Source of the DNA: Pigmentiphaga kullae
GTDB lineage: Bacteria > Pseudomonadota > Gammaproteobacteria > Burkholderiales > Burkholderiaceae_B
NCBI RefSeq assembly: GCF_004216695.1
Contig: NZ_SGXC01000002.1
Coordinates: 1,116,001-1,180,000 of the forward strand
Length of the DNA: 64,000 bases
Direction: 5' to 3'
The notes beneath the pieces are model-generated. The model had not been told where the DNA came from, searched no databases, and saw only the letters and a program-made list of their open reading frames with translations. Position 1 is the first letter of the stretch; every line of letters begins with the position of its first letter. Positions 37,690 to 54,494 of this stretch are shown here, piece after piece. Made by a program: the position numbers and the translations under genes.

Positions 37690-38670
37690 TCAATCCAGCG
37701 TCGCGCCCGCCGCCTTCACGATGGCGGGCCACCGGGCCAGGTCCGCTTCCATCCGGCCGCGGAATCCGTCCACGGTGGCCGGCGCGGGCTCCAGCCCCTG
37801 CCGGGCCAGCTTGTCGCGCACCTCGGGCCGCTCCAGGATGCGGTTCACTTCCCGGTTCAGGCGCTCGACAATGGCCATGGGCGTGCCGGCCGGCGCCACC
37901 ACGCCATTCCACACGCTCACGTCGAAATCGGCGATGCCGGCCTCGGCGAAAGTGGGCACCTGCGGCAGCCCCGCGAAACGGGTCGGCCGCGGGATGGCGA
38001 TGGCCTTCAGGCGCCCGGTCTCGATCTGCGGCAGCGAGGTCGCCAGGGCATCGAACATCAGGTCCACCTGGCCGCCCAGCAGGTCCTGCATGGCGGGCGC
38101 CGCGCCCTTGTAGGGAATGTGGCGCAGCGAGATGCCTGCCCGGGTGTTGAGCATCTCGCCCGCCAGGTGGGCGATGCCGCCATTGCCCGTCGAGCCGAAG
38201 GTCAACCCGCCAGGCTTGGCGCGGGCCAGGCGGATCACTTCCGGCAAGGTATCGGCGGCCACGGCCGGGTTCGCGACCAGCACGACCTGGTTGGTGCAGG
38301 CCAGGGCCACGGGCTGGAAATCCTTGCGCGGGTCGAACCGCAGCGAGCGGTACAGCGCCGGATTGATCGTCAGGATGGCCGAGGTCGCGAAGAACAGCGT
38401 ATGGCCGTCGGCCGGCGCGCGCGCCACCTGCTCGGCGGCGATGTTGCCGTTGGCCCCCGGACGGTTCTCGACGATCACGGGCTGTCCCAGGGCATGGCCC
38501 AGTGGCTCCGCGATCAAGCGCGCGGTGGCGTCCGTGCTGCCGCCCGCGGGAAACGGCACCACCATGCGTATCGGCCGGGTGGGATAGGACTGGGCCTGGA
38601 CCGCCGTCCATCCCAGGGAACACAGGACAGCCGCGCCCAGCGCCAGGCGTCCCGGAAGAAGTCTCGTCAT
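37690..38670 (-). CDS. Bug-family receptor (copy 7), end of hydroxylase/ring-cleavage operon
   Basis: This 326-residue periplasmic binding protein has a signal peptide ending TAVQAQ (residue 27) and the ligand loop PFPAGGSTD (D47). It is the sixth and last gene of the operon that begins at 43195 and lies 23 bp after the FAH gene. It is the second Bug receptor in that one operon, next to copy 8. Confidence 0.9.
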   Translation of the reverse strand: MTRLLPGRLALGAAVLCSLGWTAVQAQSYPTRPIRMVVPFPAGGSTDATARLIAEPLGHALGQPVIVENRPGANGNIAAEQVARAPADGHTLFFATSAILTINPALYRSLRFDPRKDFQPVALACTNQVVLVANPAVAADTLPEVIRLARAKPGGLTFGSTGNGGIAHLAGEMLNTRAGISLRHIPYKGAAPAMQDLLGGQVDLMFDALATSLPQIETGRLKAIAIPRPTRFAGLPQVPTFAEAGIADFDVSVWNGVVAPAGTPMAIVERLNREVNRILERPEVRDKLARQGLEPAPATVDGFRGRMEADLARWPAIVKAAGATLD

Positions 38671-40256: not shown

Positions 40257-41225
40257 TCAGTCCAGGGAAATGTGATTGGCCTTGATGATGGGGCCCCATT
40301 TGCGCGACTCGGCGCGGGCCAGGGCCCGGAACTGCTCGGGGCTGCCGGGGGTCGGCTCCAGCCCGAAATCGGTGAAGCGGCTCATCACCGAAGGATTCTT
40401 CAGCGCCTTGTTCAACGCGTCGTTCAGGCGGCGCACCACCTCGGCGGGCATGCCCGCCGGCCCCAGCACGCCCTGGAAGGCGAACACGTCCACGTCCTCC
40501 ACGCCCAGCTCGGCCAGGGTAGGCACGTCCGGCAGCACCGGCGTGCGGTTGCGCGTACCGATCGCCAGCGGGCGCACCTTGCCGCTCTGGATGATGGACA
40601 GGCCCGAGGCCAGGTCCAGGAACATGGCCGGCACGTGCCCGGCCATCACGTCCTGCATGGCGGGCGCGGCGCCGCGATAGGGAATGTGGGTGATGAAGGT
40701 CTTGGTGCGGTGCTTGAACATCTCCATCGCCAGGTGATGGGGCGACCCGTTGCCGACCGACGCGTAGTTGACCTTGCCGGGGTTGGCCCGCACGTAGTCC
40801 AGGAACTCCTTGAAGTTCCGGGCGGGAAAGGCCGGGTTCACCACCAGCACCAGCGGAAACTTGCCGATCGCGCCGATGTAGGTGAAGTCCTTCTCGGGGC
40901 TGAACGGCAGGCTCTTGAACAGATACTCATTGAAGGCCAGCACCGCGTTGTCGCCCGACATCACGGTATAGCCGTCGGGCCGCGACCGCGCCACCAGTTC
41001 CGCGCCCACGTTGGTGGCGGCGCCCGGGCGGTTCTCGATCACGATCTGCTGGCCCAGGCCGGCGCGCATGGACTCGGCCAGCGTGCGCGCCAGGTTGTCG
41101 GTCCCGCCTCCGGCGGGATAAGGCACCACCCACTTGATCATCTGCGAGGGATAGTCGCCCTGGGCCAGGATGGCCGGGGCCCAGGCCAGCAACATGACCG
41201 CCAGGGCGAATCTGCGTCTATGCAT
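40257..41225 (-). CDS. Bug-family receptor (copy 8), inside hydroxylase/ring-cleavage operon
   Basis: This 322-residue periplasmic binding protein has a signal peptide ending APAILA-QG (residue 21) and the ligand loop PYPAGGGTD (D43). The start at 41225 follows acggagacaacc. It is the third gene of the operon, after the FAD hydroxylase and a 73-aa protein, and probably captures the aromatic substrate of that hydroxylase. Confidence 0.9.
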   Translation of the reverse strand: MHRRRFALAVMLLAWAPAILAQGDYPSQMIKWVVPYPAGGGTDNLARTLAESMRAGLGQQIVIENRPGAATNVGAELVARSRPDGYTVMSGDNAVLAFNEYLFKSLPFSPEKDFTYIGAIGKFPLVLVVNPAFPARNFKEFLDYVRANPGKVNYASVGNGSPHHLAMEMFKHRTKTFITHIPYRGAAPAMQDVMAGHVPAMFLDLASGLSIIQSGKVRPLAIGTRNRTPVLPDVPTLAELGVEDVDVFAFQGVLGPAGMPAEVVRRLNDALNKALKNPSVMSRFTDFGLEPTPGSPEQFRALARAESRKWGPIIKANHISLD

Positions 41226-41259
41226 GGTTGTCTCCGTTTTCGTTGATGGATACATGGCT

Positions 41260-43302: not shown

Positions 43303-44127
43303 ATGAAACGCTGGAAAGTCGTCCCCGTCTCGGACACCGTCCCCTCGGCCTTCGCCGTCCGCGCCATCGCGGGCATAGGCACGCCGTCGCTGGCCGGCTC
43401 GTTCCTGTCCGCCATGCAGGAATTGCTGCCCGCCAGCCACTGCACCGTCTTCGCGCTGGAAGCGAACGGACGCGTCGCGGCGGTTTCCACGGCCAGCGCC
43501 CACGGCGAGGTCGCAGCGGTGACGGCCGCCGAGTACTACCGCAACCGCTTCGACCTGCAGGATTCGAACATGGTGTGGATGGCGCGCAAGAAGGCGCCCG
43601 TCCGGCCGCAGACCTGGCTCAGCCACCAGTACGCCGAGGACGTTCGCGATCCCCACTACCGGGACGTCTGCTACACCCAGCCCGGCATACGCGAACGGAC
43701 CTCGGTGCTGCTGCTCAATCCCGACGGCGGGCGCATCGCGGTCAGCTTCTACCGCAACCTGGCCTACAAACCCTTCGACGAACGGGATTTCCACATCATC
43801 ACCACCTGCGCGCCGGTGCTGCAGGCGGCGGTTACCGCGCACGTGCGGTCGACGTCCGAGCCGACGGCGGGCGATACCCTGCATCACAAGGTGTTGTCGC
43901 TGCTGGCCAACCGCGAGCGCCAGGTGGTGGCGCACCTGCTGGCGGGCAAGACCTCGCGCGAGACGGCCGAATTGCTGGGGCTGCGGCTGACCACGGTGCT
44001 GACCTACCGCTACCGCGCCTTCGCCAAGCTGGGCGTGCGCACCCAGCGCGAACTGCTGGCGGCGCTGGACAGCCTGCCGCTGAACGTGACGGGCCGCGGC
44101 GCGGCGTCCTCGCGCCGCCCCTCTTAG
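43303..44127 (+). CDS. LuxR-family transcriptional regulator
   Basis: This 274-residue protein has a C-terminal LuxR helix-turn-helix at about residues 203-262 (LANRERQVVAHLLAGKTSRETAELLG) and an N-terminal sensor region of unknown fold, without the autoinducer-binding signature. It diverges from the FAD hydroxylase operon across 107 bp and is the likely regulator. GGTATTC and GAATACC occur near the two ends of that gap (about 43232 and 43276), too far apart to call a single operator. Confidence 0.85.
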   Translation: MKRWKVVPVSDTVPSAFAVRAIAGIGTPSLAGSFLSAMQELLPASHCTVFALEANGRVAAVSTASAHGEVAAVTAAEYYRNRFDLQDSNMVWMARKKAPVRPQTWLSHQYAEDVRDPHYRDVCYTQPGIRERTSVLLLNPDGGRIAVSFYRNLAYKPFDERDFHIITTCAPVLQAAVTAHVRSTSEPTAGDTLHHKVLSLLANRERQVVAHLLAGKTSRETAELLGLRLTTVLTYRYRAFAKLGVRTQRELLAALDSLPLNVTGRGAASSRRPS

Positions 44128-44879
44128 TGGTGCCGCCAGTAGCCCTGGATGTCCTCGGCCACCGGCATCGCCGCCAGGAAGCCCAGCAGCACGGCCAGGG
44201 GCACGGTCGACACGAAGCCGAAATAGGCGAACGACAGCGCGCCCCCTACGCCGCCCGCGAAGAAAAGACCGACCAGCATCGCCAGCACGCGCAGCTTGGC
44301 GCGGTCGGCCTTCACGAAATGACCCGGATCGGCCTCGCGCGAGACGTTCCAGTAGAACAACTTGCCCAGTTCGATGCCGATGTCCGTCACCATGCCGGTG
44401 ACGTGGGTGGTGCGGATTTCGGCGCGCGAGATCTTGGTGATGATGGCGTTCTGCAGGCCCATGATGAAGCACAGCAGCATGACCGTGGCCGGCACCGCCA
44501 GCCAGCGGAACTGCTCGATGTTGCCCCCCAGCAGGCCGAAACACAGCAGCAGCCCCGCCTCCAGCAGCAGCGGCAGCGCGTATTCGCTGGCCAGCCGCGA
44601 GCGGCGGCCGAAGTTGATCAGCACCGCCGACGTCCCCGCCCCCAGCACGAAGAACAGCAGCGCGGCCAGCCCTTGCAGGAAGAAGGCGATGCCGCCCAGG
44701 GCCAGGTGATCGGCCATGGACGACAGGATGCCGGACATGTGGGAGGTGTACTGCTGGACGGCCAGGAAGCCGCCCGCGTTCACCGCGCCGGCGACGAGGG
44801 CCAGGATATAGGCGAGGTGGCGGTTGGCTTGAGGCGTGCGCTCGACGGAGGTCAGTTTGCGTAGGTAGAACAGGAGCAT
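44124..44879 (-). CDS. YoaK/DUF1275-family membrane protein
   Basis: This 251-residue inner-membrane protein has about six hydrophobic segments and the family signatures AYILALVAGAVNAGGFL and TSHMSGILS near the N-terminus, plus AEIRTTHVTGMVTDIGIELG in the middle. Its function is not established. Its stop codon overlaps the convergent LuxR stop region by four bases. The start at 44879 gives the usual family length. Confidence 0.85.
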   Translation of the reverse strand: MLLFYLRKLTSVERTPQANRHLAYILALVAGAVNAGGFLAVQQYTSHMSGILSSMADHLALGGIAFFLQGLAALLFFVLGAGTSAVLINFGRRSRLASEYALPLLLEAGLLLCFGLLGGNIEQFRWLAVPATVMLLCFIMGLQNAIITKISRAEIRTTHVTGMVTDIGIELGKLFYWNVSREADPGHFVKADRAKLRVLAMLVGLFFAGGVGGALSFAYFGFVSTVPLAVLLGFLAAMPVAEDIQGYWRHH

Positions 44880-44955
44880 GGCGCGGGCATTCCGGGAACG
44901 GCGGCGCACGGGCCACCAGAGGCCGCGCCGGACGACTCGCCAAGCATAACGTTTT

Positions 44956-44981: not shown

Positions 44982-45584
44982 TCAGTCGGCCTTGCCCTTG
45001 CCCGCCTTCTTCGGCGCCTCGGCGCGCGGGGCGGCGCCCAGCAGCAGATCGGCGCCGCTCATGCGCTCCAGCCAGGACAGGGTATCGGCGTACGACAGGA
45101 AATGCCGCAGGTATCCCGGCGCCAGGTCGTGCATCAGCATCAGCGATTGGTGCACGAGATGCAGCGAGTTCAGCGGCCCTGCGTTCTCGGGCACGTTCTC
45201 CAGGGCCTGCCGCAGCTCCCTGCCCACGCGCAGTTCGGCCCACAGGCCCCGGAAGTAGTCCAGCACCGCCATGTCGCCCGCGGCGTCCTGGAGCGCGGCG
45301 CCATGGGCGGACAGCAGATCGACCAGCGTACCGAGGCCGTCGGCCGGCGCAGGCGCCGCCACGGTCTCGCGCTGGTCGGCCGCCCGCTCCACGTCGCGGG
45401 CATAGGCGGCCAGCGCGCCGGCCAGCTTCTCGTCCAGGATGCGGCGCGCCTCGCCCTCGTGCGCGGACGCGCGCCGCGCCAGCGCCTCGATGAAATGGAA
45501 ACGCAGCGGATCGACGCGATCCGCCCCCTGCCCGCGCCAGGTGTCGAGCAGCGCCGCCGCGTCGGACACGGTGTCCCTACTCAC
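44982..45584 (-). CDS. zorG: DUF2894 protein, candidate Zorya type III component ZorG
   Basis: This 200-residue soluble protein has an N-terminal helical segment RFHFIEALARRASAHEGEARRILDEKL typical of DUF2894, and a Lys/Ala-rich tail. DUF2894 proteins accompany MotA/MotB-like pairs in Burkholderiales. As I recall, they were named ZorG when type III Zorya was defined. Translation appears to start at GTG 45584, overlapping the OmpA-like gene's stop by eight bases; no ATG fits. It is the last gene of the four. Confidence 0.75.
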   Translation of the reverse strand: MSRDTVSDAAALLDTWRGQGADRVDPLRFHFIEALARRASAHEGEARRILDEKLAGALAAYARDVERAADQRETVAAPAPADGLGTLVDLLSAHGAALQDAAGDMAVLDYFRGLWAELRVGRELRQALENVPENAGPLNSLHLVHQSLMLMHDLAPGYLRHFLSYADTLSWLERMSGADLLLGAAPRAEAPKKAGKGKAD

Positions 45585-46215
45585 GGCGCTGCTGGGAAGA
45601 CCGGGGCATGGGCGCGATCTCCACGCGCCGGTTGCGCGACCGGCCCTCGTCATTGGCATTGGACGCCACGGGCTGCTCGGCGCCGAAGGCGGCGGCGAAC
45701 ACCGACGACGAAGGAATCCCCTCGTCGATCAGGGCTCGCGTCACCGTCAGCGCCCGCTGCGCCGACAGCTCCCAGTTGTCGGCGAAGCGGCGGTTGCCCT
45801 CGCGTATCAAGCGGTCGTCGGTGAAACCGCTCACCATGATGATCTCGTCTCGAGCCTTCAGGTAGGCGCCCAGCGGCCCCACCAGGCTCTTGAGCACCTG
45901 CCGGCCTTCCGGCTGCAAGGCATCCGAGTTCAGCGCGAACAGCACGTTGCCGCTGATGCCGATGCGGCCATCGACCAGCGTCACCCGTCCCGTAGCCAGC
46001 GGCCCGGCCAGCGCCTGCTCCAGGGCCTGCCGCCGCTGCACCTCGCCCTGTCGCCGCTGGACTTCTTCCTCGAGCCTGGTCGAGAGTTCCAGTTGCGTGC
46101 CGATCACGCCCACCAGGAGCAGCACGAAGGCCCCCAGCATGACCGACATCAGGTCGCCGAAGACCGCCCAGACGGGCGATGCCGCCTCGACGTTGGATTC
46201 GATGTCGTCGGCCAT
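45577..46215 (-). CDS. zorB: MotB/OmpA-like protein, candidate Zorya ZorB
   Basis: This 212-residue protein has one N-terminal membrane helix (about 18-40) with an aspartate at its start (FGDLMSVMLGAFVLLL, D21). That is the arrangement of the ion-carrying aspartate in MotB, and of ZorB. A short coiled segment and an OmpA peptidoglycan-binding domain follow (ISGNVLFALNSDALQPEG, VSGFTDD, LSAQRALTV, RSRNRRVEI). With the upstream MotA-like protein it would form an ion-driven inner-membrane motor anchored to the cell wall. Its ATG abuts the upstream stop. Confidence 0.82.
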   Translation of the reverse strand: MADDIESNVEAASPVWAVFGDLMSVMLGAFVLLLVGVIGTQLELSTRLEEEVQRRQGEVQRRQALEQALAGPLATGRVTLVDGRIGISGNVLFALNSDALQPEGRQVLKSLVGPLGAYLKARDEIIMVSGFTDDRLIREGNRRFADNWELSAQRALTVTRALIDEGIPSSSVFAAAFGAEQPVASNANDEGRSRNRRVEIAPMPRSSQQRRE

Positions 46216-48581
46216 CAGGTCGCGTCGCCCACCGGCGTCCGTTGCGCGTCGAGCTGCCGCAGCTCCTCGACGATCTGTTTCTGCGACATCATGCTCAGGT
46301 CGATCACGTCCTTGGCCTGCGCGACGTAATAGGCAAGCTGCTCGTCGCTACGCGCGACGGCCTTGTCCAGCGCGCCTTCGATGCCGCGCAGCTGCTCCAT
46401 CAGCCTGTCGCTGGATTCGCCGAACAGTTTGACCGCCTGCCCCAGCGCCTCGCCCAGGCTGGCCACCTCGGCCGCGCTGCCGGTGACCTGCGCCGCCACG
46501 GACTCCAGCTTGCCGGTCTCGGCGCCGACCTGTTCGGTGAAGCGCGTGCCCACCCGGTCCAGCATGTCGGCCGACGCCGCCACCAGCGCATCGACCGCCT
46601 CGCGCTGTTCGGTGCTGGCGTGGTTGACGGTATCCAGCAGGCTGCCCACCGTTTGCAGCAGCCGCTCGCGCTCTTCCAGCATCGCGTTGTCGCGCGTCAT
46701 GCCGTCGGACAGTTGCTGCCGCAGTTCGCCGATGATCTGGGCCGCCGCCAGCGGGGCTTCCGAGGCCGCCTGCACCAGCCGCTCGATCTCGGCGATGGTG
46801 GCGCGGGCATGAGACTGGGACTCGGACGAGATCTCGCCGGCCGTGCGCGCCAGCGTGTCGCAGACCTCCTGCTGCCGGCCCGCGATCTGCGCGCCGGCCT
46901 CGCGCCATTCCTGGCTGAGCGAGCCGGCCAGGGTTTCCAGGGCGCCGGTCCAGGCCGCCTGCCGCGCCTCGTCGCGCGAGGCCAGCTCGGACCGCAGTTC
47001 GCCATGGGCCTGTCCCACCGTGTCCAGCAGCGAGGCCGCATGGCGCTCGAAGGTGGCCGCGGCCTCGGCCAGCGCCGTGTTCCAGGCGCCGGACACCGCG
47101 CCGGCCGTGGCATCCAGGCGGGCGGCGATCCCGTCCACCAGCCCCGCCGAACGCTGCTCGAAATCCCCCGCCAGCCGGTCGAACGACGCGCGGACGTCGC
47201 CGGCCAGCGCCTCGCTGGTGCGCTGGTGCCCGTCCAACGCCGCGCGCCACGCCTCGGACACCTGCCCGGCCACGTTCTCCAGCCGCGCGGCCACGGTTTC
47301 CACCATCTCGGTCGAACGCTGCGCGAAAGCCTGCGCGACGCCGTCGAAGGTGGCGCGCAGTTCGCCCGACAGGGTCTCGCTGGTCTGCTGATGCGCCGCC
47401 AGCGCCGTTCCCCAGGTCGACGAGACCTTGTCCACCGACGCCTCCAGGCGGGCGGACACGCCGTCGACCAGGCTGGCCGAGCGCTGCTCGAAGGTCAACG
47501 CGAACCCGTCCAGCGCCGTGCGCAGGTCGCCCGCCAGCGCGTCGCTGGTCCGCCGGTGCTCGCCCAGCGCGGTGTTCCAGGTATCGGCCACCGTGGCGGT
47601 GCTGGCCTCGAAGCGGCTGGACAGCGCATCCAGCTGCCGCTGCACCGCCTGCGTGACCGTCTCGTGCAGGCTGGCCGTCTCGCGCGCCAGGCCAGCCATG
47701 GCGGTCTCGACCGCCGGCTGTATCGTGGCGCCCGCCACCCGTGCGCTGTCGGCCAGGCTTTCCTTCAGGCTTTGCTCCACCGATCCGGCCAGGCGCCGGT
47801 ACTCGGCCTCCACCCGGCCATGGAAGCTTTCCTGCCCGGCCGCCAGGCGCTCGCCCAGGGCCTCGTTGTGTTTGGCCACGGACTCGGCCAGGGCCTGCAG
47901 CCGGTCCACCAGCGCCGGCATCAGATCCGCCTGCCGCTGCAACAGCTTGAACGATTCCTCGCGCTGGTGAGCCAGCGAATACGGGCGCAGCACCGTCGCG
48001 ATACGCGTATCCAGCATCTGCGCCGCCTGCAGGCGCTCGCGCCGGCACAGCGAGGCCAGCAGCCCCAGCATCGCCGACGCCGCCACGCCCGCCACCGAGG
48101 TCCCGAAGGCGAAGCCCAACCCCTTCACGGGCGCCGCCAGCGACGCGCGGATCGCCTGCAGGTCGGTCGCGCTTTCCAGCGCCACGCCGGTGCCCCGCAG
48201 CGTCGCCACCATGCCCAGGAACGTGCCCAGCATGCCCAGCAGCACCAGCAGGCCGGCCAGATACGGCGTCAGCGCCGGCCCCGGCAGCCCCACCCTTTCA
48301 CCCTCGACGCGCAGCCGCACCGCGTTGCGCAGCGAAGGATGCACCTGCTCCAGCCACGTCCCCAGGCTGGACGGCGGCGCCGACAGCTCCGCCGCGGCCC
48401 GCGCCAGCGAGGACGTCGCCTCGTGGAAACGCCGCAGTTCCAGCCCGCCCAGCACGTAGAACGCGGCGATCAGCAGGATCACCGCCAGCGCCAGCAGGTT
48501 CGAGCCGACATAGCCCACGCCCACCCAGCCCACCACGGCCAGACCCACGAAGAAAACCACGAAAGGAAGATATCTGCTCAT
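46215..48581 (-). CDS. zorA: DUF802 MotA/ExbB-like protein with long helical tail, candidate Zorya ZorA
   Basis: This 788-residue protein has two membrane helices near the N-terminus (about 5-45) and two more at 105-128 and 155-178. The latter pair carries GMLGTFLGMVATLRG and GFAFGTSVAGVAASA, the MotA/TolQ/ExbB stator pattern. The remaining 600 residues are a continuous Ala/Glu/Gln-rich helical tail containing almost four copies of a 55-residue repeat (Trp at 335, 390, 445, 500). A long intracellular tail on a MotA-like subunit is the hallmark of ZorA. It is also annotated as DUF802 in Burkholderiales. Confidence 0.82.
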   Translation of the reverse strand: MSRYLPFVVFFVGLAVVGWVGVGYVGSNLLALAVILLIAAFYVLGGLELRRFHEATSSLARAAAELSAPPSSLGTWLEQVHPSLRNAVRLRVEGERVGLPGPALTPYLAGLLVLLGMLGTFLGMVATLRGTGVALESATDLQAIRASLAAPVKGLGFAFGTSVAGVAASAMLGLLASLCRRERLQAAQMLDTRIATVLRPYSLAHQREESFKLLQRQADLMPALVDRLQALAESVAKHNEALGERLAAGQESFHGRVEAEYRRLAGSVEQSLKESLADSARVAGATIQPAVETAMAGLARETASLHETVTQAVQRQLDALSSRFEASTATVADTWNTALGEHRRTSDALAGDLRTALDGFALTFEQRSASLVDGVSARLEASVDKVSSTWGTALAAHQQTSETLSGELRATFDGVAQAFAQRSTEMVETVAARLENVAGQVSEAWRAALDGHQRTSEALAGDVRASFDRLAGDFEQRSAGLVDGIAARLDATAGAVSGAWNTALAEAAATFERHAASLLDTVGQAHGELRSELASRDEARQAAWTGALETLAGSLSQEWREAGAQIAGRQQEVCDTLARTAGEISSESQSHARATIAEIERLVQAASEAPLAAAQIIGELRQQLSDGMTRDNAMLEERERLLQTVGSLLDTVNHASTEQREAVDALVAASADMLDRVGTRFTEQVGAETGKLESVAAQVTGSAAEVASLGEALGQAVKLFGESSDRLMEQLRGIEGALDKAVARSDEQLAYYVAQAKDVIDLSMMSQKQIVEELRQLDAQRTPVGDAT
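47091..47585 (-). repeat. 165-bp tandem repeats inside the zorA-like gene
   Basis: Three near-complete copies, plus a partial fourth, of a 55-codon unit. Each unit starts around Trp-x-x-Ala-Leu and includes (R/Q)TS(D/E)xLxG(E/D)(L/V)R and (E/A)QRS. Tryptophans fall at residues 335, 390, 445 and 500, exactly 55 apart. Copy number could vary between strains by recombination, which would lengthen or shorten the tail. Confidence 0.8.
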
Positions 48582-48591
48582 CTAGGACGGA

Positions 48592-49308
48592 TCAGCTTGC
48601 GCGAAGGGCCGCCAGCAGCCCCTCGACCGGTTGAAATCGGAAATCCAGTTCGGCCAGCAGGACGCCCCGCATGTCCGCGCGGAAGGTATCCAGCCAGGGG
48701 CCGGGATCGTTGTCGTCATTGGCGGGATCCTGGCCGGCCTTGCGCAGGCGCAGGAAATGGCCTTCCAGCAGGCCGGGCACCGAGGCCAGCAGATTGCGCT
48801 CCTGCGTGCCCAGCACCCGCTCCATGACCGCGTCCACCGCTGCCAGCCGCGCCATTTCCGGCGAGCCGGCGGCCAGCATGGCCCGCAACCGGCCGCGCAG
48901 GGCCGCGATGCCGGTCTCCATCTGCTGCTGCTTGGCCAGGCAGCGCTGGCGGTAGCGGGAAAAATCGGTGTCCTCGTCCGGATCGACCAGCAGCGCGGGA
49001 TCGCGCCGGTGGCGGCTGCGCACGGGGCGCAGCACCCTGTCCCGCTCGATGGCCAGGGCCAGTTCGTCCCGCACCCGCGCGCAATCCTCCCGCGCGGCCG
49101 TATCGCTGGCGGGCGTGCTGGCAGGCGCCGCTTTCGCGTTGCCGCTCAATACCGCGGACAGCGCGATGGCATCGGTCCAGCCGAGCCACAGGCTCAGCCG
49201 GTCGGCAAGCGGCTGCCGGGGGGTGGGAACGTGGGCGTGCGCCAGGCGGGCAAGCAGGCGGACGAAAGCCGGGCCGCTGGCGCCTGTGCGCCCGGACATG
49301 TGCGCCAT
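48592..49308 (-). CDS. zorF: DUF3348 protein, candidate Zorya type III component ZorF
   Basis: This 238-residue soluble protein fits DUF3348: an N-terminal FVRLLARLAHAHVPTPRQPLADRLSLWLGWTDAI, an Arg-rich middle (RDRVLRPVRSRHRRDPALL), and helical remainder. DUF3348 proteins are, to my recollection, ZorF of type III Zorya, encoded next to the ZorA-like gene as here (10 bp spacing). It is the first gene, so the 112-bp region upstream should hold the promoter. The molecular role is unknown; a nucleic-acid effector role is suggested only by its basic stretch. Confidence 0.72.
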   Translation of the reverse strand: MAHMSGRTGASGPAFVRLLARLAHAHVPTPRQPLADRLSLWLGWTDAIALSAVLSGNAKAAPASTPASDTAAREDCARVRDELALAIERDRVLRPVRSRHRRDPALLVDPDEDTDFSRYRQRCLAKQQQMETGIAALRGRLRAMLAAGSPEMARLAAVDAVMERVLGTQERNLLASVPGLLEGHFLRLRKAGQDPANDDNDPGPWLDTFRADMRGVLLAELDFRFQPVEGLLAALRAS

Positions 49309-49420: not shown

Positions 49421-50146
49421 CTAGTCGGCCACTTCGATCTTCCGGTAGACCTTGAACCCCTGGCTGCGCACCGTCGACACCGGCAGTTCCAGCCCGCACG
49501 CCTGTTCCACCTTGCGCCGCAGGCGGCGCATCTGCGTGTCCAGGCGGCGCTGGTCGTAGTCCAGGAAATTCTCGCCCAGCGCCTGCACGATGGCCTTGCG
49601 CGTCACGCATTCGCCGGTGCCGTTGGCCAGGGCGCGCAGCACCCGGTAGTCCTGCCCCGACAGCGGAATCGGCGCGAACCCGGGGGGCGTCAGGCTGGGC
49701 GGCGCCGACGAAAGCCGCCATGCCTCGCCGGCCGTCCCGGCCGGTTGCAGGCGTTCGTCCGGCAGCACGTCGTCGCGCGCGGAAATGTCGCGGGCCACCG
49801 CCACCCGACGCGCCTTGTCGTCCGACAGGCGCGCCGACCACATGATACGGACCACGCTGCCGTCCTTGCGCACGTAGCGGTTCTCGAAATAGCGCTGGAG
49901 ATAACCGGCCTCGATACGCTCCACCGCCTGCAAGGTGCGCGCGCGGTCATCCGGATGGACGAACTCGATCATGCGCCTGCCCAGCATCTCCTCGGGCTTG
50001 TAGCCGAAGATGCTTTCGCCCGCCCCGGTAATGGACAGGAAACGGCCGTCGTGGTCCACGACGCAGATGGCATCTAGCAGCAGGTCCAGGACTTCGGCGG
50101 GCGGCAGCTTGGCCATCGGGTCATTCGGGTAATTGGGGTCACGCAA
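49421..50146 (-). CDS. PAS sensor fused to an OmpR-type winged helix (one-component regulator)
   Basis: This 241-residue protein joins an N-terminal PAS domain (about residues 15-122; ICVVDHDGRFLSITGAGESIFGY ... AVARDISARD) directly to a C-terminal winged-helix DNA-binding domain of the OmpR/PhoB kind (about 160-235; LSGQDYRVLRALANG ... STVRSQGFKVYRKI). There is no receiver or kinase domain, so it would sense and bind DNA by itself. It is just upstream of the Zorya-like cluster on the same strand; any control of that cluster is speculation. Confidence 0.82.
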   Translation of the reverse strand: MRDPNYPNDPMAKLPPAEVLDLLLDAICVVDHDGRFLSITGAGESIFGYKPEEMLGRRMIEFVHPDDRARTLQAVERIEAGYLQRYFENRYVRKDGSVVRIMWSARLSDDKARRVAVARDISARDDVLPDERLQPAGTAGEAWRLSSAPPSLTPPGFAPIPLSGQDYRVLRALANGTGECVTRKAIVQALGENFLDYDQRRLDTQMRRLRRKVEQACGLELPVSTVRSQGFKVYRKIEVAD

Positions 50147-51016: not shown

Positions 51017-51973
51017 TCACTCCGGCCTGAGTCCCGCCTTCTCCACCGCGACGCGGTACTGGTCCGACTGCTGCTGCAGGAAACGCGCGAACTCTGTCGG
51101 GGTCGAGGGCTTGGCCTCCATGCCCTGCTGCTGCAACGTCTTCTGCACCTCCGGATCCTTCAAGGCCTGCGCGAACAGGTCATGCAGCCGGTCCACCCGG
51201 TCCTGGGCCACGCCCGCGCGGGTCAACAGCCCCATCCAGGTTTCCGACGAAAACCCCTCCAACCCCGCCTGGGCGAAAGTCGGCACCCCGGGCAGCGCCG
51301 CCGAGCGGCTGGTTCCGGACACGGCCAACGCCCTCAGCTTGCCCGCCGCGATGTGCGGCGCCACCACGCCCACGTCGCCCAGCGTCGCGTCCACCTCGCC
51401 CGACAACACCGCCATCGTGGCCGGCGCCGACCCCTTGTACGGCACGTGCAGCATCTCCACGCCCGCGCGCTGCTTGAACAGCTCGAAGCCCAGATGCCCC
51501 GACGACCCATTGCCGAAAGACGAGAAACTCGCCTTGCCCTGCTGCGCCTTCGCCCAGTCGATGAAACCCTTCAGGTCCTGCGCGGGCACCTTCGACGACA
51601 CCACCAGGACGTGCGGATTCGAGGCCAGCGCCGTCACCGGCTGGAAATCCTTGCGCGCATCGAACGGCAGGCTCTTGATCAGATACGGATTGATGACGAA
51701 ACTCGCCGCCATCATCAGCACCGTCTGCCCATCCGCCGGCTTGGCCAGCAGCGCCTGCGCGCCGATGACCGTACCGCCGCCGGGACGGTTCTCCACCACC
51801 ACCGTCACCCCCGCCGCCTTGCCGACCACCTGGGCCAGCGCACGCGCCAACGCATCGGACGACCCGCCCGCGGCATAAGGCACGATCAGCGTCAGGGGTT
51901 GCGAGGGAAACGGCTGCGCCATCGGGGCGGTGGATGCCAGCGACAGCGCCAGGCCCAACACGAGTTTCTTCAT
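51017..51973 (-). CDS. Bug-family receptor (copy 9), between ridA-like and gntR genes
   Basis: This 318-residue periplasmic binding protein has a short signal peptide ending TAPMAQ (residue 20) and the ligand loop PYAAGGSSD (D40). It begins 2 bp after the RidA-like stop and is followed by the GntR gene after 54 bp. Its substrate may be an amino or imino compound, given the RidA neighbour; that is inference. Confidence 0.9.
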   Translation of the reverse strand: MKKLVLGLALSLASTAPMAQPFPSQPLTLIVPYAAGGSSDALARALAQVVGKAAGVTVVVENRPGGGTVIGAQALLAKPADGQTVLMMAASFVINPYLIKSLPFDARKDFQPVTALASNPHVLVVSSKVPAQDLKGFIDWAKAQQGKASFSSFGNGSSGHLGFELFKQRAGVEMLHVPYKGSAPATMAVLSGEVDATLGDVGVVAPHIAAGKLRALAVSGTSRSAALPGVPTFAQAGLEGFSSETWMGLLTRAGVAQDRVDRLHDLFAQALKDPEVQKTLQQQGMEAKPSTPTEFARFLQQQSDQYRVAVEKAGLRPE

Positions 51974-53522: not shown

Positions 53523-54494
53523 ATGAAACCGACATGGATGCTGGGCGCCCTGTTGGCGGCCTGTTCCACGCTCGCGGTTGCTGGCGATGCCGGGAACTAC
53601 CCGGCCAAGCCCGTCAAACTGGTCTTGCCGTTTCCCACCGGCGCCACCTTCGTCGTCGGCCAGATGCTGGCCGAACGATTGACGCAGGAACTGGGTCAGC
53701 CGGTCGTGGTGGAAAACAAGTCCGGCGCCGGCGGACGCATCGCCATGGAACACGTCGCCAAGGCCCAGCCCGACGGTTATACCCTGCTGCTGACCTCGCC
53801 CACACTGACGATTACCCCCGCCATCAACCAGAGCCTGCGCTTCGACCCCTTGGCCGACCTGGCACCCGTGGCCATGGTCGCCGAGGTGCCCAACGTATTC
53901 GTAGTCAATCCACAGAAGTTCGGCCAGGATGACTTTTCCGCGCTGCGCGCAAGGCTTGCCGCCCATCCGGGCCAGTACAGCTACGGCTCGGGCGGCGCAG
54001 GATCCTCCAACCATCTAGCCTTCGAGAAATTCAAGGCACTGACCGGCACCGACATCCTGCACGTTCCCTACCAGGGCGCCTCGCAGGCCGTAACCTCGGC
54101 GGTAGGCGGACAGATCGACATGGTCATCAACGGCCTGCCCAGCTCCGTGCCGCTCATCAAAGGCCAGCAACTGAAAGCCATGTTCGTGCTGACCCGGGAA
54201 CGCCAACCCCTGCTGCCCGACACCCCATCGGCGGTCGAAGTCGGCTTACCCGACATGGTCGTGACGACCTGGTACGGCGTCCTCGCGCCGCAAGGCACGC
54301 CATCGCCCATCGTCGACAAGATCTCCGCCGCCATCAAACGCGGATTCTCGGCCGCCGAGGTCCGTAAACGCCTGGCGGACAACGGCATCGAAGTCGTCTA
54401 TTCCAATCCGCGCGACTTCTCCGCCTTCATCAAGCAGGACTACACCGCCTGGAAAAAAGTCGTGTCCGACGCGGCCATCAGCGTGCAGAACTGA
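53523..54494 (+). CDS. atypical Bug-family receptor (copy 10) lacking the GG-x-x-D loop
   Basis: This 323-residue protein is clearly a Bug receptor by its C-terminal half (HVPYQGASQAVT, TTWYGVLAPQGTP). The N-terminal ligand loop, however, reads PFPTGATFV instead of PFxxGGxxD, so the binding aspartate is Val44. A cysteine in LLAAC (C14) could be a lipobox, suggesting a lipoprotein instead of a free periplasmic protein. It leads an operon with a cupin and an alpha/beta hydrolase. Ligand chemistry is probably different from the other ten. Confidence 0.85.
   Translation: MKPTWMLGALLAACSTLAVAGDAGNYPAKPVKLVLPFPTGATFVVGQMLAERLTQELGQPVVVENKSGAGGRIAMEHVAKAQPDGYTLLLTSPTLTITPAINQSLRFDPLADLAPVAMVAEVPNVFVVNPQKFGQDDFSALRARLAAHPGQYSYGSGGAGSSNHLAFEKFKALTGTDILHVPYQGASQAVTSAVGGQIDMVINGLPSSVPLIKGQQLKAMFVLTRERQPLLPDTPSAVEVGLPDMVVTTWYGVLAPQGTPSPIVDKISAAIKRGFSAAEVRKRLADNGIEVVYSNPRDFSAFIKQDYTAWKKVVSDAAISVQN

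What the first reader, a model, noticed from the sequence alone, without database searches (positions are those of the whole stretch)
44982..49308. Candidate type III Zorya anti-phage system (zorF-zorA-zorB-zorG)
Seen: four tightly spaced same-strand genes. They encode a DUF3348-like protein, a 788-aa MotA/ExbB-like protein with a 600-residue helical tail, a MotB/OmpA-like protein with an Asp at the head of its membrane helix (D21), and a DUF2894-like protein starting at an overlapping GTG. Known: Zorya uses a MotA/MotB-like motor (ZorA with long tail, ZorB with OmpA domain). My recollection is that type III adds DUF3348 (ZorF) and DUF2894 (ZorG) in place of ZorC/D/E. Inference: this is a complete type III locus. 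It sits among metabolic genes without mobile elements, so it could also be a fixed, domesticated motor with another job.
Basis: partly seen in the sequence, partly recalled or inferred. Interest (0 to 1): 0.85.

Follow-up and report, generated by a model that had tools for sequence, protein, structure and literature searches.

The report
Type III Zorya with modular motor shaft
This is a complete four-gene type III Zorya locus, a known kind of bacterial anti-phage motor, and its motor protein carries a long shaft that in its relatives grows and shrinks by whole repeat modules while the motor end and the tip stay nearly constant.

Summary
In detail: four same-strand, tightly packed genes at 44982-49308 match the PADLOC type III Zorya models, and the putative ion-binding Asp is D21 of ZorB. 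It is a new member of a known kind; Payne et al. 2021 defined type III Zorya and showed phage protection by another member in E. coli. The genus is Pigmentiphaga: 10 of 11 genomes of the genus carry DUF3348, but only 86 of 250 (17 of 43 genera) in the family. Gene order is kept in 113 of 113 loci holding all four genes. Neighbours are metabolic, neighbourhoods differ between genera, and the zor tree rejects monophyly of the genus: an old, stable, sometimes transferred locus.

The new element is the ZorA shaft. Motor (198-199 residues in 99 of 108) and tip (159-160 in 83 of 108) are nearly constant; the shaft varies threefold by tandem modules. In 63 of 108 distinct proteins it is exactly 339+87n residues, with n+1 copies of an 87-residue module; other lineages use other units. 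Against a general grid: 1 of 10 plasmid-collection replicons and 2 of 7 single-contig genomes lie on it. Native activity and effector are untested; neither DUF protein gave a fold match.

The parts
48592..49308 (-). DUF3348 gene (ZorF of Payne 2021; labelled ZorG3 in PADLOC-DB 2.0.0), 238 aa, all-helical in the AlphaFold2 model
   Evidence: PADLOC PDLC00658 8.3e-88; Pfam PF11828 280.3 bits; AF2 mean pLDDT 79, seven helices; no PDB fold match with E <= 0.001
46215..48581 (-). zorA, 788 aa: MotA/ExbB-like motor, long shaft, conserved tip
   Evidence: PADLOC ZorA3 E=0, 1260.5 bits; Pfam DUF802 in three stretches; residues 107-194 match solved chain 8vvn_C, E 5.6e-5
47988..48581 (-). ZorA motor part, residues 1-198; length to the anchor is 198-199 in 99 of 108 homologues
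46695..47987 (-). ZorA shaft between the two anchors, 431 residues (congeners at the same site 504 or 449)
47133..47627 (-). three tandem 55-residue shaft modules (ZorA residues 319-373, 374-428, 429-483)
   Evidence: self-comparison: best offsets 55 and 110
47075..47076 (-). approximate junction (ZorA residue 502/503) where congeners G002, G006, G007 and G008 carry 73 more residues
   Evidence: alignment; shaft 431 against 504
46755..47012 (-). the single 87-residue-type shaft module of this ZorA (residues 524-609)
   Evidence: profile match
46218..46694 (-). ZorA tip, residues 630-788, about as conserved as the motor; residues 740-759 most conserved
   Evidence: mean pairwise identity 0.735 for the tip, 0.745 motor, 0.582 and 0.571 for two shaft segments
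45577..46215 (-). zorB, 212 aa: one membrane helix and an OmpA-like domain of the peptidoglycan-binding type
   Evidence: PADLOC ZorB3 4.2e-115; Pfam OmpA 69.3 bits; NCBIfam PRK09040.1 378.6 bits, cut-off 194
46153..46155 (-). codon of ZorB Asp21, putative ion-binding residue
   Evidence: invariant in 17 of 17; aligned with FSDLM/YADLM of two solved ZorB chains
44982..45584 (-). DUF2894 gene (ZorG of Payne 2021; labelled ZorF3 in PADLOC-DB 2.0.0), GTG start overlapping the zorB stop, 200 aa
   Evidence: PADLOC 3.3e-70; Pfam PF11445 181.8 bits; possible starts; low-confidence AF2 model, pLDDT 69, pTM 0.40

Best explanation
A complete type III Zorya operon that works as an ion-driven membrane motor used against phages. 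ZorA (five copies in the solved type I and II complexes) surrounds two ZorB helices; ZorB anchors in or senses peptidoglycan, and ion flow past Asp21 turns or strains ZorA (inferred from types I and II, Mariano 2025). The motion is carried along the long ZorA shaft to a conserved tip (inferred). DUF3348 and DUF2894 probably act at or through that tip as adaptors or regulators (inferred; about 45% likely as stated). The shaft evolves by gain and loss of tandem modules while motor and tip nearly keep their length (shown by sequence). Shown: gene content, order, conserved Asp, purifying selection, modular shaft. Unknown: the effector, and whether this copy protects its host.
For: All four PADLOC type III models hit. 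Asp21 invariant in 17 of 17 and aligned with solved ZorB. Same order and strand in 113 of 113 loci with all four genes (108 after removing five duplicate contigs). All 43 genomes positive for DUF2894 (of 121) were positive for DUF3348 (checked); the reverse could not be checked because the misses are only partly listed. A Stenotrophomonas type III system lowers plaquing in E. coli (Payne 2021). Module copies equal rung+1 in 63 of 63 on-grid proteins. At least 22 rung changes on the tree. Tip as conserved as the motor.
Against: No defence island seen: of 56 window ORFs PADLOC hits only mad3, mad8 and C3a156. Near-fixed in the genus (10 of 11) and listed as highly conserved in Ralstonia solanacearum (figure legend), which suits a housekeeping role as well. 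No recognisable nuclease or other effector: DUF2894 has no PDB sequence match up to E 1, DUF3348 only one at E 0.9, and neither has a fold match at E <= 0.001. No functional test of this copy was found.
Confidence: 0.7

Rival explanations
1. A fixed, domesticated envelope motor: the same ZorAB-DUF machine, but kept for a cellular task (envelope stress or division-related) rather than phage defence.
For: 10 of 11 congeners carry it; metabolic neighbours; no complete second defence system seen in the window or in 14 scanned relative loci; no relative among viral contigs with the single ZorA query, which reaches close relatives only; on plasmid records only 27 of 72,556, all of 366 kb or more; purifying selection.
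Against: No match in 26 of 43 genera sampled in the family and none in one complete congener; split in another assembly; transfer signal and 53 different neighbourhood groups; published phage protection by a relative.
Confidence: 0.22
2. Inert survivor: an intact locus that once defended and is now carried without use in this lineage.
For: The window copy has 73 shaft residues fewer than four close congeners; the locus is missing or split in 2 of 11 congeners.
Against: All four frames are open and Ka/Ks is at most 0.43 in every comparison with four congeners; equal or shorter shafts are common in other intact loci.
Confidence: 0.08

Closest known systems
Zorya type III (Payne et al. 2021, PADLOC)
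   Same: Same four components with very strong model scores; same gene content as described in the passages seen.
   Different: The experimentally tested member is from Stenotrophomonas nitritireducens; this one is from the genus Pigmentiphaga. The two DUF labels are swapped between paper and PADLOC-DB. Modular shaft length is not mentioned in the passages seen.
Zorya types I and II (ZorAB with ZorCD or ZorE)
   Same: ZorA motor matches 8vvn_C (E 5.6e-5); ZorB profile matches 8vvn_B and 8qyd_F; conserved Asp in the same place.
   Different: No ZorC, ZorD or ZorE; two DUF proteins instead; no nuclease or helicase family hit in the operon.
Flagellar MotAB and other 5:2 motors (PomAB, ExbBD, TolQR)
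   Same: MotA/ExbB-like channel part, MotB/OmpA-like partner.
   Different: A cytoplasmic part of about 590 residues and partners DUF3348 and DUF2894; the MotB models among the 25 NCBIfam rows shown (of 39) score below their cut-offs.

Membership tests
Zorya type III | ZorA: MotA/ExbB-like motor with long cytoplasmic tail | tested here: met
   PADLOC ZorA3 1260.5 bits; about 590 residues after the motor
Zorya type III | ZorB: MotB-like with OmpA-type domain and conserved Asp | tested here: met
   ZorB3 4.2e-115; Pfam OmpA; Asp21
Zorya type III | flanking DUF3348 and DUF2894 genes | tested here: met
   order kept in relatives
Zorya type III | phage protection | not testable with these tools
   published only for another member, as far as the searches here show
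Zorya type III | dependence on ion flow and peptidoglycan binding | not testable with these tools
   shown for types I and II in Mariano 2025 (passages)
Zorya type I or II | ZorC/ZorD or ZorE present | tested here: not met
   the operon holds DUF3348 and DUF2894 instead; 56 other window ORFs give no Zorya hit at E <= 1e-8
Defence island | neighbouring defence systems | tested here: not met
   56 window ORFs: mad3, mad8, C3a156 only. 130 flanking ORFs of 14 relative loci: mad3 in three, and one member each for HEase, mad8, AriA, HNH and two Csa3 models.
Mobile element | integrase, transposase or similar genes beside the locus | tested here: inconclusive
   none in ten window genes from both sides tested one by one, nor among the 25 of 57 Pfam families shown for 56 window ORFs; the other 32 families were not shown, and relatives were not tested

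The most novel reading that the evidence does not exclude
The ZorA-III shaft is a modular transmission rod whose length may change only in steps that keep the helical register: whole tandem modules of 87 (24 turns at 3.625), 80, 55 or 29 residues are gained and lost in place, while motor and tip are held. Length then cannot be a precise ruler to a fixed target; what matters is an in-phase link between motor and a conserved tip, where DUF3348 and DUF2894 would read rotation or strain. Nature has thus made a ready length series (shaft 273 to 861 residues) for testing how a Zorya motor signals.
Probability: 0.33. Interest if true: 0.65.

Novelty: new member of a known kind. Interest (0 to 1): 0.45.

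Why it matters
Type III looks the least studied Zorya in the papers found: the two DUF proteins gave no known fold here and no effector is known to me. The loci collected give a constant four-gene set, a conserved ZorA tip that is a natural place for the DUF proteins to act, and a natural series of shaft lengths in near-identical motors, for example pairs that differ by exactly one module. That makes the open question of what the ZorA tail transmits directly testable.

Tried and rejected
Defence-island reading: not supported for the window and 14 relative loci. Phage or small-plasmid carriage: no viral contig confirmed, only OmpA-domain partial matches in phages, 27 large replicons. Fold of the two DUF proteins: nothing at E <= 0.001; the DUF2894 model is too weak to interpret. 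Unit length as a multiple of 11: rejected, since 87, 80 and 73 are not multiples. 'Array-only' hydrophobic period as proof of phase: rejected as circular, because a tandem array puts its own harmonics into the spectrum. Universal 87-residue grid: rejected (1 of 10 replicons from the plasmid collection; 2 of 7 single-contig genomes). Empty site in G001, G004 and G005: no comparable site found. The first rpoB tree used wrong-strand frames for part of the loci and was discarded; one search failed; one search is the one used. One search failed; one search printed its counts, then crashed, and was repeated. In the second check I lowered the probability of the novel case from 0.35 to 0.33 after counting the single-contig genomes.

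Full report
The observation. The window carries, on the - strand, DUF3348 (48592-49308), zorA (46215-48581, 788 aa), zorB (45577-46215, 212 aa) and a DUF2894 gene starting at a GTG that overlaps the zorB stop (44982-45584, 200 aa). The longer DUF2894 frame of the ORF finder (to 45659) would overlap zorB by 83 nt; the short form matches the 8-nt overlap chosen for close congeners. PADLOC gives ZorA3 E=0 (1260.5 bits), ZorB3 4.2e-115, DUF3348 8.3e-88 and DUF2894 3.3e-70, against 2e-16 at best for type I or II ZorA models. Pfam agrees. NCBIfam scores the type I and II ZorA models below their cut-offs and calls ZorB 'PRK09040.1, hypothetical protein'. PADLOC-DB 2.0.0 uses the two DUF labels the other way round from Payne 2021.

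What is already known. From passages of Payne et al. 2021 (PMC8565338): type III was defined by DUF3348 (ZorF) and DUF2894 (ZorG) beside a gene pair printed there as zorBC, and a Stenotrophomonas nitritireducens system lowered plaquing of at least one phage and protected cultures in E. coli. From passages of Mariano et al. 2025 (PMC11890865): types I and II form ZorA5B2 and need peptidoglycan binding, ion flow and an intact ZorA tail; [quoted passage not shown] A figure legend of PMC13064858 gives type III Zorya in R. solanacearum as an example of a highly conserved system. A passage of PMC12584637 says that only the first one or two genes of Zorya I and Zorya III changed expression in phage-infected B. 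cenocepacia K56-2, and does not count them among the active systems. Hu et al. 2025 (Nature) is not held; I know it only by recall and citation.

Where it occurs. Named contigs of the same length as congeners' contigs show that the genus is Pigmentiphaga. DUF3348 is found in 10 of 11 genomes of the genus, 86 of 250 of the family in 17 of 43 genera, 8 of 200 of the order, of which three are in the family and two are weak, and 7 of 274 of the class, window genome included. DUF2894 was found in 43 of 121 family genomes; all 43 were DUF3348-positive. Genomes without a match are only partly listed, so I give no per-genus fractions beyond the window's genus and cannot check the reverse. G001 lacks the locus. 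In G009 zorA is split near codon 20 between two contigs, by rearrangement or assembly error.

Order and neighbours. Of 39 unnamed stretches, 36 hold all four genes in this order; L085 and L086 have only a weak DUF3348-like match and L057 is the split G009 locus. Of 80 named loci, 76 hold all four in order; L108, L109 and L143 end with their contig and L098 is again the G009 locus. With the window this makes 113 of 113 in one order and strand, largest gap 325 nt; five are the same contig held twice, so 108 are distinct. The 80 named loci are the best 80 of 330 found with one DUF3348 pattern, so they favour close relatives. Loci linked by shared nearby genes (up to three a side, 55% identity, single linkage) form 53 groups: the largest has 17 Paraburkholderia or Burkholderia genomes; the next holds the window and the six congeners that carry DUF1275 in their stretch, four of them twice. 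G004 and G005 are outside it. Window neighbours by Pfam: FAD monooxygenase-type, LuxR-type, DUF1275, PAS with Trans_reg_C, GntR, TctC and L-PSP proteins; eleven of 56 window ORFs are TctC. PADLOC results for neighbours are in the membership table.

Descent. The rpoB tree holds the genus together (SH-aLRT 83). The zor tree does not: forcing the nine zor-bearing congeners in the tree together costs 44.9 log units, p-AU 0.0009. G004 and G005 carry another zor lineage, near G019, at another site. Tree distances still correlate with rpoB (r 0.62 in the family, 0 of 2000 permutations as high; r 0.65 for all 29, 7 of 2000). Holding the family together is only marginally rejected (p 0.046). Descent looks mostly vertical with some transfer.

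The shaft. Between a motor-end anchor and a tip anchor, 108 distinct ZorA (of 109; L081 fell below the anchor score) have a motor part of 198-199 residues in 99 and a tip of 159-160 in 83, but a shaft from 273 to 861. In 63 of 108 it equals 339+87n exactly: 27, 20, 7, 4, 2, 2 and 1 for n = 0 to 6. A profile of the module, built from these 63, finds n+1 copies in 63 of 63. The tree needs at least 22 changes of rung among on-grid rows and 62 changes of exact length among all rows. The 17 genomes with shared neighbours span shafts from 339 to 600, so length changes seem to happen in place. Of 74 nearest-relative pairs with unequal shafts, 42 differ by a multiple of 87 and 32 do not. Other units by self-comparison: 55 in Pigmentiphaga, 80 in Burkholderia stagnalis, 29 in Paraburkholderia phenoliruptrix; about 80 in Cupriavidus metallidurans. 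The window ZorA has three full 55-residue modules, one 87-type module, and 73 residues fewer than four close congeners.

Limits of the shaft result. Ten replicons fetched from the plasmid collection (of 27 hits) gave 1 on the 87 grid; three had 452, the rest 364, 379, 390, 430, 527 and 670. Of seven single-contig genomes among the unnamed ones, 2 are on the grid (774, 339) and 5 are not (357, 500, 504, 504, 711). So the grid belongs to some lineages; changing by modules is wider. Many genomes are drafts, where tandem repeats can be miscounted. The distinct length differences line up best with a helical period of 3.625 (mean cosine 0.519; 62 of 20000 random sets reach it when the period is scanned from 3.60 to 3.70), while DUF3348 and DUF2894 length differences do not (0.012, 0.158). 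But the hydrophobic period measured by windows is 3.655-3.675, where the agreement is weaker (0.38 at 3.65, 0.22 at 3.667). Register-keeping is therefore only suggested. Tandem duplication alone also yields whole modules.

Function. Motor and tip are about equally conserved (0.745 and 0.735 mean pairwise identity), shaft segments less (0.582, 0.571), ZorB 0.758, DUF3348 0.578, DUF2894 0.503 (107 loci, 1500 sampled pairs). The most conserved tip stretch is residues 740-759. AlphaFold2 predicts DUF3348 as all-helical (pLDDT 79) and DUF2894 with low confidence (69, pTM 0.40). Neither has a fold match at E <= 0.001; by sequence the PDB gave nothing better than E 0.9. I infer adaptors or regulators at the tip; there is no direct evidence.

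Novelty. I found no description of modular or stepwise ZorA tail length in the listings of searches of the held library, nor in the passages seen; that does not cover Hu et al. 2025 or other unheld papers. Pfam's DUF802 entry, as I recall it, already notes repeats. Verdict: a new member of a known kind, with a property of type III ZorA that looks new and testable.

Noticed in passing
L057, L098 (G009:C14) and L216 (G009:C9): In Alcaligenaceae bacterium SAGV5 zorA is split near codon 20, with the rest of the operon on another contig: rearrangement or assembly error.
   Followed up: partly
window 49421-50146: A PAS plus Trans_reg_C regulator gene lies 112 nt upstream on the same strand; it was found at the locus in G002, G006, G008 and G009 but not in the stretches of G003, G004, G005, G007 or G010.
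   Followed up: partly
window 44124-44909: A DUF1275 gene lies directly downstream on the same strand in the window and in G002, G003, G006, G007 and G008, and about 3.5 kb further on in G010; not found beside zor in the other stretches searched, G009's split locus apart.
   Followed up: partly
L220 (Variovorax paradoxus VAI-C), L224 (Cupriavidus metallidurans CH34): ZorA shafts with five successive module matches, spaced 47-50 and 76-80 residues.
   Followed up: partly
L043/L086 (G387), L044/L085 (G257): Weak DUF3348-like matches inside 453-460 aa frames with no zor genes found near: perhaps a distant relative of DUF3348 in another setting.
   Followed up: no
PADLOC-DB 2.0.0 models PDLC00652-658: ZorF and ZorG labels are swapped relative to the defining paper.
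   Followed up: yes
window 37690-38670, 40257-41255, 51017-51973, 53523-54494 and elsewhere: Eleven of 56 scanned window ORFs match TctC, the tripartite tricarboxylate transporter receptor family.
   Followed up: no
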